Origin: Jeotgalibacillus aurantiacus
Lineage (GTDB): Bacteria > Bacillota > Bacilli > Bacillales > Jeotgalibacillaceae
Direction of reading: 5' to 3'
NCBI RefSeq assembly: GCF_020595125.1
Contig: NZ_JACNMS010000004.1
Span: forward strand, 186,001-250,000
DNA: 64,000 nucleotides
Part shown: positions 6,591 to 19,469 of the stretch, piece by piece
Numbering within the stretch: position 1 is the stretch's first letter
Layout: every line of letters begins with the position of its first letter
The notes under the pieces: model-generated
The model's input: the letters and a program-made list of their open reading frames with translations, nothing else
The model's database searches: none
What the model was told of the DNA's origin: nothing
Made by a program: the position numbers and the translations under genes

Positions 6591-6664
6591 GTCCCAGTAG
6601 CTCAGCCGGATAGAGCAACGGCCTTCTAAGCCGTCGGTCGGGAGTTCGAATCTCTCCTGGGACG
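6591..6664 (+). tRNA. tRNA-Arg (anticodon TCT)
   Basis: Complete cloverleaf of 74 nt: acceptor stem GTCCCAG / CTGGGAC, D arm, anticodon loop CTTCTAA (anticodon TCT, reads AGA), and T arm with GTTCGAATC. CCA is not encoded. The last 30 nt double as the left attachment core of the integrated element; the tRNA remains intact because the element carries the same sequence. Its original terminator now lies beyond the right end of the element, at 19517. Confidence 0.97.
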
Positions 6665-6665
6665 C
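6635..6665 (+). repeat. attL core (31-bp direct repeat)
   Basis: These 31 bases, from CGGTCGGGAG through TGGGACGC, covering the T arm and 3' acceptor strand of tRNA-Arg, are repeated exactly at 19439-19469. Outside this span the two copies diverge at once. This is the standard signature of tyrosine-integrase insertion into a tRNA 3' end. Confidence 0.95.
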
Positions 6666-6675
6666 TAAACGATGG

Positions 6676-6750
6676 AAAAAGCCTCTTAACTACGTTAGAT
6701 AGAATCGGTCAATGATTCGGTCAACTAACGATGGTTAGGGGGCTTTTTTT
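6676..6750 (+). terminator. Element-borne terminator with arm sites in loop
   Basis: 15-bp stem (6676-6690 with 6734-6748, two G-U pairs) and a T run to 6750, placed 12 bp after the tRNA. The 43-nt loop contains an inner CGTTAG / CTAACG stem and two direct AATCGGTCA-like motifs. It replaces the tRNA terminator displaced by integration. The 3' arm contains AGGGGG, the likely ribosome-binding site of the integrase. Confidence 0.8.
6702..6716 (+). promoter_or_regulatory. Putative integrase/Xis arm site, left
   Basis: GAATCGGTCAATGAT matches, in inverted orientation and with one mismatch, the sequence 19382-19396 near attR. A second partial copy (ATTCGGTCA) follows at 6714. Paired sites inside both ends of an integrated element are typical arm-type sites. 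Confidence 0.5.
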
Positions 6751-6755
6751 GCGTT

Positions 6756-7709
6756 ATGACGAAAAGAAAACCGGAATTACACGTTACCACCAACTTAAAC
6801 GACATCTTCGAGCCTTTACCTCAATTAATGACCGTTGAAAAGGCGTTGGGCATTGTACTGCGACAAATGCAGGCTGCCGGACTACGTGAGCGAACGATTG
6901 ATGACTATGATCGACACGTCACTCACTTTGCCAAAGTTACGGGCGTTAAACTACTCCGAGAACTCAACGCTAATCATATTTACGATTGGCTATCTTCAAT
7001 GAACGTAAGCAATCAAACGAAACTTACCCGTTTAAAGTGCATAAAAGCGTTTCTAAGCCGTTGCTTTGACGCGGGGTGGCTAGAGTCTAAGTTTTGGACA
7101 AACATCCGTATAAAGGTCGACACGCCCGTCAAAGAGGGTGTAGCTGATCGAGAAATAACCGTCTTACTATCCATGCTCGATTTAAACAAGTTTGTTGAGC
7201 TACGAGACGCCACGGCAGTCCTTGTAATGTATCAAACGGGATTGCGCGTTGGAACAGTCGCAAAGTTACGACATAAGCATGTCAAACTGATCGAGCAACT
7301 ACTTCAAGTCGATGGCAGCTTAATCAAAAATCACGATTCGCTTTACCTGCCGTTTGATGACGTCTTAAAGCGATTTCTGACTGTCCTCATGGAGCAAAAC
7401 GATAAAATGCGTGCTGCTCGGAACTTACAGGGCGATTACTTGTTTATGACGATTAACGGCGGATCTATATTCTCAACGCCGACCAACAACATATTAACTA
7501 AGCGATTGAAAATGTACTCGAAAATGTACGGTCTGAAAAATCTCAATCCTCACGCAATCAGAAGGGGGTTTGCGAAAAACCTGTTACGCAAAGGGGCGAA
7601 CATTGCATTGATCTCCAAAGCGTTAGGGCATAGCAATATCGAAGTTACAACGCGCTATTTGCATTTAGATAAAGAAGAAGTGGCCGAAAGTCTACGGAAA
7701 TTTCTATAG
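6756..7709 (+). CDS. int: Tyrosine integrase of the element
   Basis: A full-length tyrosine recombinase (317 residues) expected to catalyse integration and excision at the tRNA-Arg att site. It has an N-terminal SAM-like core-binding domain (about 25-125) and a C-terminal catalytic domain with Arg164 (TGLRVG), His266 and Arg269 (HAIRR), His292 (LGHSN) and the nucleophile Tyr301 (TRYLHLD). It lacks an evident N-terminal arm-binding domain of the Tn916/lambda type, so it is XerC-like in size. The ATG is 13 bp after AGGGGG, which lies in the terminator stem, so read-through tRNA transcripts may mask it. Confidence 0.95.
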   Translation: MTKRKPELHVTTNLNDIFEPLPQLMTVEKALGIVLRQMQAAGLRERTIDDYDRHVTHFAKVTGVKLLRELNANHIYDWLSSMNVSNQTKLTRLKCIKAFLSRCFDAGWLESKFWTNIRIKVDTPVKEGVADREITVLLSMLDLNKFVELRDATAVLVMYQTGLRVGTVAKLRHKHVKLIEQLLQVDGSLIKNHDSLYLPFDDVLKRFLTVLMEQNDKMRAARNLQGDYLFMTINGGSIFSTPTNNILTKRLKMYSKMYGLKNLNPHAIRRGFAKNLLRKGANIALISKALGHSNIEVTTRYLHLDKEEVAESLRKFL

Positions 7710-7727
7710 GGAAAGCGAGGGATAAAC

Positions 7728-7859
7728 GTGGATCACTTACAGCGACTAATCGAAGAAGTAAACGAAACAGCCGACACTAACCCGACCGTAACCGTCAACC
7801 GTGCTGATCTCTTACGACTGATTGAAGAAACCGAGCAAGCACGACAGCAACGTAACTAA
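7728..7859 (+). CDS. Small protein downstream of integrase
   Basis: A 43-residue gene with a GTG start preceded by GCGAGGG, beginning 18 bp after the integrase stop and in the same direction. The product is mostly helical and acidic, with LQRLIEEVNE and LLRLIEETEQARQQ at its ends. It is too short and lacks basic character for a typical excisionase. No family recognised. Confidence 0.6.
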   Translation: MDHLQRLIEEVNETADTNPTVTVNRADLLRLIEETEQARQQRN

Positions 7860-7944
7860 AAAAGAACATAAAAAAAAGCCACCGCTGCTGGCATAAAGCA
7901 ACGATGACACCCGTAAAAATCATCTTAGCAAAAAATCCGGCAGT

Positions 7945-7974
7945 TTGCAAATTCTGCCCATTTGTTCATTTTAT
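7945..7974 (+). promoter_or_regulatory. Promoter of SOS-controlled gene
   Basis: TTGCAA (7945-7950) and TTTTAT (7969-7974), spacer 18 bp, directly abutting the LexA box at 7975. Confidence 0.5.
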
Positions 7975-7988
7975 CGAACATACGTTCT
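7975..7988. promoter_or_regulatory. LexA (DinR) SOS box
   Basis: CGAACATACGTTCT matches the Bacillus SOS consensus CGAAC-N4-GTTCG in 9 of 10 fixed positions. It lies right after the -10 region and 33 bp before the start codon at 8021, the geometry of LexA repression. Confidence 0.8.
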
Positions 7989-17891: not shown

Positions 17892-17928
17892 AATAAACAC
17901 ACACAAACGAAAAGGGAGACGATGATAA

Positions 17929-18231
17929 ATGAAAACAATCACAATTACGTATAAGGAACACGAAGGGCGATACGGGCACGCGTACAGATCGATGACAGCG
18001 AAGGACGCAGAAGGACGCGACATCCATACGGAAATTTCCACGGTTAATCCGGTACATTTCATCGAGAAGGCGGTTACAGAAGTAGTCAAGGCGATGGTTG
18101 CAAACGGGCAGGCTGCCGATGACTTTACGATTGAGCTACCGGCAGAGATTACGCTTACCGCAGAGTTGCAGGCGCACATTGCGGACAAGTTAGCGTCTGA
18201 TCCGAAAGTTGCTAGTGTGGTGTTCGGATGA
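17929..18231 (+). CDS. Unknown element protein, 100 residues
   Basis: AAAGGGAG upstream of ATG. It starts MKTITITYKEHEGRYGHAYR (beta strands) and ends in a helix-strand pair (ELQAHIADKLASDPKVASVVFG). It overlaps the next gene by ATGA. No family recognised. Confidence 0.65.
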   Translation: MKTITITYKEHEGRYGHAYRSMTAKDAEGRDIHTEISTVNPVHFIEKAVTEVVKAMVANGQAADDFTIELPAEITLTAELQAHIADKLASDPKVASVVFG

Positions 18232-18386
18232 AAAAAGTGACGGTGTATAATCGGACAGCCGAGACAACGGAAGAATTAAAGACGATTACTGAATATATCA
18301 AACAGCAAAACGGTAAGATCATAGGGATGATCGGACTAAAAGACGGACAGGGTGTTTCAGTAACGTTTGAGTTGCCGGGAGAATAA
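18228..18386 (+). CDS. Small element protein, 52 residues
   Basis: Coupled to the preceding gene by an ATGA overlap. The product starts MKKVTVYNRTAETTEELK and ends VSVTFELPGE, with a beta-alpha-beta look similar in style to its upstream neighbour. Last gene of the rightward train. No family recognised. Confidence 0.6.
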   Translation: MKKVTVYNRTAETTEELKTITEYIKQQNGKIIGMIGLKDGQGVSVTFELPGE

Positions 18387-18394
18387 GCGTTAAC

Positions 18395-18420
18395 AGGCGG
18401 GGGCTAACGTGGCCCCTCCC
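18395..18420. terminator. Weak hairpin between convergent genes
   Basis: GGCGGGGGC / GCCCCTCC stem without a clear T run, placed between the rightward small genes and the leftward cargo gene. Confidence 0.35.
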
Positions 18421-18453
18421 AAATCATTATAGTTTAAAAGTATTTTCCATTAA

Positions 18454-19206
18454 CTAATAGTTTTTGAAATGAAAAGTCTCTTTAAATGGAATATCTTCGT
18501 TAATTTCTACCTTTTTTTTAAGGTCTGTGTAAATTTCCATATACAATTTAATCGCAATGCAAAATTCCTCAAGATGGAAATGCACTAAATTGTGAATTTC
18601 TTTATCTCTTGTAAAACTGATTTTATATTCTTCTAAAGAAACAGTGTGCCCTAAGTAATAACTGTAACTGTTCGGATGAACTCTTTCTGATAATTCATCG
18701 TAAGATATTCTGAATGTAGCCGTCTTAATATTTTTATACTTTTTCATGTAGGAGTCCAATGAGTCAATAAGTTTCATAACATTTATTGGATCAAGGTAGT
18801 CAATGGTTTTTTCGTTTTTACTTTTTACCCCTAAATAAAGTCGTTCTAATTCGTGATCAAAATCGATCATTGTAATTGTTTCGTCAAGATATTGATTATA
18901 TTTTTTGTGCATGTAAGCTAATGAACCTGTTGTTTCAAAAATCGCGCGTAAAGCTAAAACAGAAATTTCAGGATTGTTTGCGTTTAGTCCGTGAATATAA
19001 GCTTTTACCAGTAATTTTATTCTATATAAATGCGTCTGTAAAAAAACTATACAATTCTGCCCAATTAAATTTAATGGAGTTCTGACAATAGTTAAATGCT
19101 CAATAAAGTTTTTTTCGCAAAAATTGAAAAAATCAGTTGTATCGGAAACGAAGTTTATTTTGTCTGAAGATTTTAATATGTTTTTAACGGACTTATTTAG
19201 TTTCAT
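18454..19206 (-). CDS. AT-rich cargo gene, possibly HEPN/DUF5677-like
   Basis: A 250-residue, mainly alpha-helical protein on the minus strand next to attR. Segments LALRAIFETTGSLAYMHKKY (about 85-104) and YDELSERVHPNSYSYY (about 169-184) resemble the paired helices and R-x-H-like signature of DUF5677/HEPN-type proteins, some of which are RNases in abortive-infection systems; this match is from memory and tentative. GGGGGTGG precedes the ATG. The gene is clearly more AT-rich than the rest of the element and is opposite in direction, which marks it as a separately acquired cargo module at the typical cargo position. Confidence 0.6.
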   Translation of the reverse strand: MKLNKSVKNILKSSDKINFVSDTTDFFNFCEKNFIEHLTIVRTPLNLIGQNCIVFLQTHLYRIKLLVKAYIHGLNANNPEISVLALRAIFETTGSLAYMHKKYNQYLDETITMIDFDHELERLYLGVKSKNEKTIDYLDPINVMKLIDSLDSYMKKYKNIKTATFRISYDELSERVHPNSYSYYLGHTVSLEEYKISFTRDKEIHNLVHFHLEEFCIAIKLYMEIYTDLKKKVEINEDIPFKETFHFKNY

Positions 19207-19359
19207 AAGCCACCCCCGTAATTTTTATAATTAAATAATAACAGATAATAGAAAAGTAAATTCTATTGAAGATATTTTACTGTGGAACTTAATAATGAAA
19301 ATACGCAAATATTATATAGAAGAAACTCGTTGATTTCCTATAGTCTAAATGCTAAGATA

Positions 19360-19406
19360 TACGTAAATAATCGGCAGATCGATCAATGACCGATTCAACT
19401 TACGTA
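19360..19406. promoter_or_regulatory. Nested palindrome near attR (arm site)
   Basis: TACGTAA / TTACGTA outer arms (19360-19366, 19400-19406) enclose AATCGG / CCGATT (19369-19374, 19390-19395). The inner part 19382-19396 is the inverted match (14 of 15) to the left-end motif at 6702-6716. Confidence 0.55.
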
Positions 19407-19438
19407 GCAGGGCTATCGGAAAGCCTTCGTTTTCAACG

Positions 19439-19469
19439 CGGTCGGGAGTTCGAATCTCTCCTGGGACGC
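19439..19469 (+). repeat. attR core (31-bp direct repeat)
   Basis: Exact copy of 6635-6665, that is, the 3' end of tRNA-Arg without its 5' part. The host tRNA terminator follows downstream. Confidence 0.95.

What the first reader, a model, noticed from the sequence alone, without database searches (positions are those of the whole stretch)
6635..19469. Satellite-like integrative element in tRNA-Arg with no capsid, packaging or conjugation genes
Seen: exact 31-bp att repeats, integrase beside attL, SOS box, two XRE regulators, AEP primase, second recombinase, HNH nuclease, a dozen small unknown genes and a cargo gene at attR. Known: phage satellites (PICI, PLE) and integrated plasmids carry int, regulator, primase and accessory genes without structural genes. 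Inference: this is a replicating, damage-inducible element that either depends on a helper phage or lives as an excisable plasmid. The combination of primase, minimal recombinase and small-gene train does not match a named class I can recall.
Basis: partly seen in the sequence, partly recalled or inferred. Interest (0 to 1): 0.8.

Follow-up and report, generated by a model that had tools for sequence, protein, structure and literature searches.

The report
tRNA-integrated, phage-satellite-like PrimPol mobile element
A 12.8-kb mobile DNA element sits in a tRNA-Arg gene of a Bacillales-type bacterium; it carries its own replication genes but no recognised virus shell genes, while its relatives each carry one or a few phage assembly genes, so it probably belongs to a little-known family of phage parasites.

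Summary
A 12.8-kb element lies between exact 31-bp repeats of the tRNA-Arg(tct) 3' end (6635-6665, 19439-19469); one close same-genus genome has the empty site. It encodes an inward-facing tyrosine integrase, an HTH replication initiator behind a LexA-like box, a plasmid-type small tyrosine recombinase, two XRE proteins, an AEP/PrimPol primase, an HNH nuclease, small unknown genes and an inverted gene at attR. Profile searches of its ORFs gave no capsid, portal, terminase or relaxase.

The primase led to 11 related integrated loci in Bacillales: 10 have the integrase beside a tRNA 3' end, 8 have both att repeats. All 11 encode a phage packaging or morphogenesis protein (tape measure in 7, TerS-like in 7, tail, scaffold; in L002 and L005 only the TerS-like one). 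No ORF of 250 aa or more in the 9 att-bounded elements, window included, reads as capsid, portal or large terminase. Distant primases are on staphylococcal plasmids and a phage-plasmid.

I read it as a gene-poor member of an apparently unnamed family of PrimPol phage satellites. It fails published Gram-positive PICI criteria (no divergent regulator pair). Helper dependence is inferred, no helper is known, and an integrative plasmid is a real rival. The second recombinase is ordinary.

The parts
6591..6665 (+). tRNA-Arg(tct), attachment gene; attL core 6635-6665
19439..19469 (+). attR, exact copy of the 31-bp core
   Evidence: empty site in G004
6756..7709 (+). tyrosine integrase, faces into the element; closest relatives among the loci sit at tRNA-Arg(tct) in L001, L006 and L063
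7975..7988 (+). LexA-like SOS box CGAACATACGTTCT upstream of rep
8021..8806 (+). HTH_36 replication initiator (rep); listed ORF begins at 7904, start judged by eye
8959..9096 (-). possible 45-aa peptide ORF with a good RBS, downstream of the nrd-like promoter copy
9136..9252 (-). stretch 83% identical to the region upstream of a host ribonucleotide reductase gene, with paired NrdR-like boxes
9991..10563 (-). 190-aa tyrosine recombinase without N-terminal domain, plasmid type; probable multimer resolvase (role inferred)
11482..11703 (+). XRE-type HTH regulator 1 (listed ORF begins at 11431; start judged by RBS)
11758..11796 (+). conserved box copy 1, upstream of the g59-primase operon
11818..11997 (+). 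g59, small protein conserved next to the primase in the family
12000..13427 (+). AEP/PrimPol primase with C-terminal HTH match (listed ORF begins at 11994; start judged by eye)
13437..13475 (+). conserved box copy 2, just after the primase
13536..14159 (+). cysteine-rich (zinc-ribbon-like) protein, homologues near the primase in L059, L062 and, weakly, L001
14245..14466 (+). XRE-type HTH regulator 2
15024..15590 (+). HNH endonuclease (endonuclease VII-like)
15723..15935 (+). g70, phrog_1709-like protein with homologues in L001, L004/L060 and L032
16363..16782 (+). g139, phrog_20081-like protein of unknown function
17259..17891 (+). g210, helical-looking protein of a weakly conserved family; in relatives it lies in the arm with TerS/tape-measure/scaffold genes; function unknown
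18454..19206 (-). inverted accessory ORF of unknown function beside attR

Best explanation
The element is an integrated member of a family of phage satellites of Bacillales built on a plasmid-type PrimPol replicon. Steps shown by sequence: site-specific insertion at the tRNA-Arg 3' end, an empty site elsewhere, a conserved replication core, and no recognised packaging or shell gene. Steps inferred: DNA damage relieves LexA repression of the initiator; the integrase excises the circle; the initiator, g59, the PrimPol primase and host helicase/polymerase replicate it; the small tyrosine recombinase resolves multimers; the repeated box upstream of and after the primase co-regulates replication and right-arm operons; an SOS-induced helper phage supplies capsid, terminase and tail, after which the packaged DNA re-integrates in the next cell's tRNA-Arg. 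The window member has no recognisable TerS, tape-measure, tail or scaffold gene, so for it the helper step is the weakest.
For: att repeats, tRNA and empty site. Eleven related loci with the same primase (about 50-68% identity): 10 of 11 have the integrase beside a tRNA 3' end and 8 of 11 have both att repeats. All 11 encode a phage packaging/morphogenesis protein: tape measure in L006, L063, L007, L059, L060, L032, L062 (PHROGs 2.2e-4 for L006, 4.9e-14 or better for the rest scanned, Pfam TMP_3 for L060); TerS-like in L002, L005, L006, L007, L063, L060 and L067 (same element as L059) (PHROGs 5.5e-7 to 2.9e-20); tail proteins in L001, L032, L063, scaffold in L061, large terminase in L007 alone. 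No ORF of 250 aa or more in the 9 att-bounded elements reads as capsid, portal or large terminase. LexA-like box upstream of rep in W, L061 and G180. Conserved box after the primase in 11 of 12 loci by eye. Primase and a 42%-identical small recombinase occur on a 38-kb Mammaliicoccus phage-plasmid. g210 relatives in phage-gene-bearing siblings.
Against: The window element itself has no recognisable phage shell or packaging gene. No helper was found: two resident HK97-type prophage contigs share no more than short weak matches (best E 0.11) with the window, and the box occurs nowhere else in the host genome at up to 2 mismatches; only PF05065 capsids and PF03354 terminases were looked for in the host. 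Only selected ORFs of the relatives were scanned with profile libraries (10 each). In L002 and L005 the phage gene is only a TerS-like HTH protein, and for L063's TerS the best Pfam hit is a transposase-type HTH. The primase has no match in 50,697 phage records. Four relatives carry an FtsK-like ATPase beside a Replic_Relax protein, which could mean conjugative mobilisation. The LexA-like box is absent upstream of rep in the other loci with rep, and single-mismatch sites also occur elsewhere in several elements. No excision, induction or particle data.
Confidence: 0.55

Rival explanations
1. Integrative plasmid: an excisable, SOS-responsive plasmid that replicates by the initiator and PrimPol primase and spreads by natural transformation, general transduction or chance, with no dedicated helper.
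For: Primase relatives on 29 plasmid records; the four records opened are circular, among them a 6.45-kb plasmid and a 10-kb one that carries an integrase; second recombinase typical of plasmids; no recognised phage gene in the window element.
Against: All 11 integrated relatives carry a phage packaging/morphogenesis gene; the integrated elements' primases are separated from the four plasmid primases in the tree with support 1.000.
Confidence: 0.3
2. Remnant of a prophage or phage-plasmid that lost its structural genes.
For: A Mammaliicoccus phage-plasmid shares primase and small recombinase and has annotated terminase, portal and capsid genes; the window lacks the tape measure of seven relatives.
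Against: Integrase, initiator and primase reading frames are open at full length beside their relatives; nine separate att-bounded elements lack the same shell genes, and tape measures of related elements from different genera resemble each other; exact ends and an empty site.
Confidence: 0.08
3. Integrative mobilisable element moved by a conjugation system, using an FtsK-like coupling protein and a Replic_Relax-like partner.
For: L006, L060, L059 and L032 encode an FtsK-like ATPase (PF01580) next to a PF13814 Replic_Relax protein.
Against: The window has no FtsK-like match (best E 0.43) and no similarity to relatives' proteins in that stretch other than the recombinase, and no relaxase; no such ORF pair was seen in 8 of the 12 loci.
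Confidence: 0.07

Closest known systems
Gram-positive PICI / SaPI
   Same: Site-specific integrase, regulators, primase plus initiator, similar size (12-22 kb over the 9 bounded elements), TerS-like gene in relatives, no capsid gene seen
   Different: Integrase faces inward on the same strand as most genes; no divergent repressor pair in the window; PrimPol primase apart from the initiator; initiator behind a LexA-like box; several relatives carry tape-measure, tail or scaffold genes
Staphylococcal PrimPol plasmids (for example S. epidermidis 6.45 kb, S. equorum 10 kb)
   Same: Homologous primase (29-30% identity), circular replicons, integrase on the S. equorum one
   Different: Held here only as plasmids, no phage shell genes annotated, primase in a separate clade
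Mammaliicoccus sciuri phage-plasmid (NZ_CP048733)
   Same: Primase (32%) and small tyrosine recombinase (42%); an HNH gene is annotated near the primase
   Different: Has ParA and annotated terminase, portal, capsid and tail genes
Capsid-forming PICIs and PICMIs
   Same: Helper-dependent islands carrying part of, or no, phage morphogenesis genes (known to me here only from passages of PMC11389934 and the abstract start of PMC10803314)
   Different: cfPICIs bring capsids and take tails; the relatives here bring tail or tape-measure genes and no recognised capsid

Membership tests
Gram-positive PICI (criteria from passages of PMC6092414) | Pair of divergent regulatory genes | tested here: not met
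   Both XRE genes of the window are on +; L001, L005, L006 and L007 have a leftward XRE-type gene
Gram-positive PICI | int transcribed with the repressor, opposite to the replication genes | tested here: not met
   int, rep and primase all on +
Gram-positive PICI | Replication module of primase and initiator | tested here: inconclusive
   Both functions present but apart; not compared with PICI pri or rep directly
[quoted passage not shown]
   Met by the window; not met by relatives such as L063, L001, L061, L062
Gram-positive PICI | Size around 15 kb | tested here: met
   12.8 kb
Gram-positive PICI | att site never used by prophages | tested here: inconclusive
   No related integrase within about 1.5 kb of this tRNA in 11 of 11 other genus genomes; prophages in general were not surveyed
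Gram-positive PICI | Helper-dependent induction and packaging | not testable with these tools
   Needs induction and lysates
Gram-positive PICI | PICI-exclusive orthologues | not tested
   No PICI gene set was compared
Prophage | Capsid, portal, terminase, tail, lysis genes | tested here: not met
ICE / IME | Relaxase and coupling protein | tested here: not met
   for the window; four relatives have an FtsK-like ATPase with a Replic_Relax partner
Plasmid-type replicon (what it works like) | Primase, initiator and resolvase-type recombinase with homologues on circular plasmids | tested here: met
   Primase on all four plasmids opened, initiator on L014, recombinase on L015 and many others

The most novel reading that the evidence does not exclude
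Bacillales carry an undescribed family of PrimPol phage satellites, integrated mostly at tRNA-Arg and tRNA-Leu genes, that couple a plasmid-type replicon (LexA-controlled in some members) to one or a few phage morphogenesis genes, most often a TerS or their own tape-measure protein, so that they would reshape or replace the helper's tail rather than its capsid. The window element is a member that has lost or never gained the tail gene, and it also carries a copy of a host ribonucleotide-reductase promoter with paired NrdR-like boxes that could sense nucleotide shortage during phage replication.
Probability: 0.35. Interest if true: 0.75.

Novelty: new variant of a known kind. Interest (0 to 1): 0.5.

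Why it matters
If the family are satellites, they add a lineage in Bacillales whose replication core is a plasmid PrimPol module and whose morphogenesis gene is often a tape measure, a virion part that I did not see described as satellite-supplied in the few passages and abstracts I read (PMC6092414, PMC11389934, PMC11364771, PMC10803314). They would be a test case for how satellites arise from plasmids or phage-plasmids and how integration modules are swapped, since integrase and primase trees disagree.

Tried and rejected
SPbeta operator: the repeated box was compared with the first 90 kb of SPBc2 (of 134 kb) because the MrpR paper (PMC10516654, abstract and passages) describes a repressor binding repeated elements; no site with fewer than 4 mismatches was found, so that link is dropped.

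Resident helper: HK97 capsid and large terminase sit on two host contigs of 12.6 and 11.3 kb, but no shared DNA beyond short weak matches and no box outside the element. Other prophage types were not searched for.

Hidden TerS, tape measure or FtsK in the window: TerS profile best hit E 0.0015 was the HTH of XRE2, next the initiator's HTH at 0.0049; tape-measure best 0.13; FtsK best 0.43 (E-values for this small set); dropped.

g210 identity: phmmer links are E-values against 11 sequences only; direct links from g210 are to L061, L032 and more weakly L063 and L062, the rest through chains. PHROGs gives 0.004 to a virion structural protein in 1 of 7 members and scattered single hits otherwise; PDB profile hits are unrelated helical proteins, best E 0.0029. 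Left as unknown. Structure prediction was asked 12 times and the machine was busy each time, so no model exists.

Free viral contigs: a second scan with the primase alignment gave only L007 again. The window's primase had no match in the phage records. Distant primases in G057, G268, G347 and G159 (26-32% identity) lie in other contexts and were left out of the family. Further weak primase-profile hits and the 80 viral loci with the small recombinase were not examined.

RNA families in the non-coding stretch: none at E up to 1. tRNA-3'-end-like sequence on the S. equorum and S. epidermidis plasmids: none by the pattern used.

Literature: searches listed no paper that by title or abstract start describes this family; the library is open-access only. 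Passages were read of PMC10516654, PMC11389934, PMC6092414 and PMC11364771. The SatelliteFinder paper was not held.

After the filing check I ran two more family searches; they confirmed the resolvases, the FtsK/Replic_Relax pairs, the host ribonucleotide reductase, the TerS-like proteins and the tape measures that had rested on similarity.
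Full report
OBSERVATION. ARAGORN finds one tRNA in the window, tRNA-Arg(tct) at 6591-6665. Its last 31 bases recur exactly at 19439-19469. The left flank finds this tRNA in all 12 genus genomes. Joining the window's flanks and aligning them gives one close relative, G004 (96% over the left flank), in which the alignment runs through the junction and the core is followed directly by right-flank sequence. None of the 11 other genus genomes has a related integrase within about 1.5 kb of this tRNA, and none has a match to the primase. 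The ends are well fixed and it is a real insertion.

GENES. Integrase, initiator, small recombinase, two XRE proteins, PrimPol primase and HNH nuclease are identified by Pfam and PHROGs. The primase resembles CRISPR-associated PrimPol proteins (NF040561, 3.2e-19, below that model's cut-off; PDB 7nqd/7nqf by profile). By eye, both tyrosine recombinases keep the catalytic R, K, HxxR, H and Y. The remaining right-arm genes are small and mostly unmatched. No structural, packaging, relaxase or coupling gene was found.

FAMILY. The primase found six loci in the named genome collection, one viral contig, and, as a profile, eight strong genomes among 397 of the order, the window's own included (25 of 397 at E up to 0.001, many of them weak and partial). 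After merging duplicates (L003=L059, L004=L060, L002=L031; judged by equal contig lengths) there are 11 loci besides the window: L001, L002, L005, L006, L007, L061 (G278), L063 (G236), L062 (G269), L060 (G342), L032 (G090), L059 (G180). Ten of the 11 have the integrase next to a tRNA 3' end: tRNA-Arg(tct) in L001, L006, L063; tRNA-Leu(caa) in L005, L007, L061, L062, L060; tRNA-Gly(ccc) in L002; tRNA-Val(gac) in L032. L059 has none. Both att repeats are seen in eight (29 to 58 bp); L005, L007 and L059 lack a second repeat in what was held.

PHAGE GENES. Tape-measure proteins of 509-889 aa are in seven loci (PHROGs for six, weakest L006 at 2.2e-4; Pfam TMP_3 for L060); L006/L059/L007 and L060/L032/L062 form groups that reach across genera. 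TerS-like proteins are in seven loci, all with a PHROGs terminase-small-subunit family as best hit (5.5e-7 to 2.9e-20), although by Pfam the one tested, L063's, is a transposase-type HTH. L001 and L032 have tail-type proteins (PHROGs 'minor head', Pfam Prophage_tail), L063 a YqbQ-like tail protein, L061 a scaffold protein, L007 a large terminase. Thus 11 of 11 relatives have at least one such gene and the window has none recognised; in L002 and L005 it is the TerS-like protein alone. In the nine att-bounded elements each ORF of 250 aa or more is a recombinase, initiator, primase, FtsK-like ATPase, HNH or cysteine-rich protein, tail/tape-measure protein, g210 relative or terminal accessory ORF; none reads as capsid, portal or large terminase. 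This rests on a crude gene caller, and several of these assignments (cysteine-rich, some recombinases and initiators) are by BLAST similarity or eye alone.

REGULATION. A LexA-like box lies just upstream of rep in the window (1 mismatch), in L061 (1 mismatch) and in G180 (2 mismatches). Sites with at most 1 mismatch are expected about 0.2 times in a shuffled window element; other elements with rep have none upstream of rep, and several have single sites elsewhere. A box of about 37 nt, TATATAAATAAGTTATTAGTACCGAAAACGTACA in the window, lies within about 60 nt after the primase match in 11 of 12 loci by eye (not L063) and upstream of the g59-primase operon in five (W, L006, L007, L060, L032). 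In the window the 18-nt core is found twice, exactly, against 0.06 expected at up to 3 mismatches, and not elsewhere in the host genome at up to 2. Its function, operator or promoter part, is inferred.

SECOND RECOMBINASE. Relatives of the 190-aa protein occur in 2202 of 72,556 plasmid records and 157 of 50,697 phage records. Other members carry a serine resolvase (L060, L061, L072, and an N-terminally short one in L059; Pfam) or another tyrosine recombinase (L062, L002, L005; by similarity). A multimer-resolution role is the simplest reading.

EVOLUTION. Integrases group by tRNA (Arg, Leu, Gly with Val); primases do not, for example the L006 (Arg) primase groups with L007 (Leu) and that of G342 (Leu) with G090 (Val). 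Integrase modules have been exchanged. The four staphylococcal-family plasmid and phage-plasmid primases form a separate group (support 1.000).

HOST PROMOTER COPY. Bases 9136-9252 match, on the minus strand, the region upstream of a host ribonucleotide reductase gene (98 of 118 positions; Pfam PF02867 1.3e-45 for the part held; the name nrdJ, and NrdR and its box, are from memory). It holds two NrdR-like boxes 33 bp apart; the second has three changes from the host's copy, two of which keep its symmetry and one of which does not. It faces a 45-aa ORF with a good RBS. None of the 11 other loci has such a pair (for elements split over several loci only the primase-bearing stretch was scanned).

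VERDICT. A real, ordinary-sized integrative element of an apparently unnamed PrimPol satellite-like family. It works most like an SOS-linked plasmid replicon tied to phage; satellite status of the window member is inferred from its relatives, at about 0.55.

Noticed in passing
window 9136-9252 and 8959-9096, minus strand: Copy of a host ribonucleotide-reductase promoter region (83%) with paired NrdR-like boxes in front of a 45-aa peptide ORF; not seen in the 11 other loci.
   Followed up: partly
L006, L063, L007, L059, L060, L032, L062: Open tape-measure genes of 509-889 aa in elements without recognised capsid genes, in groups shared between genera; suggests tail-altering satellites.
   Followed up: partly
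L091 (G000:C13) and L092 (G000:C14): Two HK97-type prophage pieces of the host share flanks at 96-99% but have different head and packaging modules.
   Followed up: partly
L006, L060, L059, L032: FtsK-like ATPase next to a Replic_Relax protein left of the primase; possible mobilisation pair (Pfam).
   Followed up: partly
H5, plasmid NZ_CP073891 (28.5 kb, S. epidermidis): Five primase places in one record, as if a multimer of the 6.45-kb plasmid.
   Followed up: no
window 36996-37232 and 61395-61470: T-box leader and L21 leader, ordinary host features.
   Followed up: no
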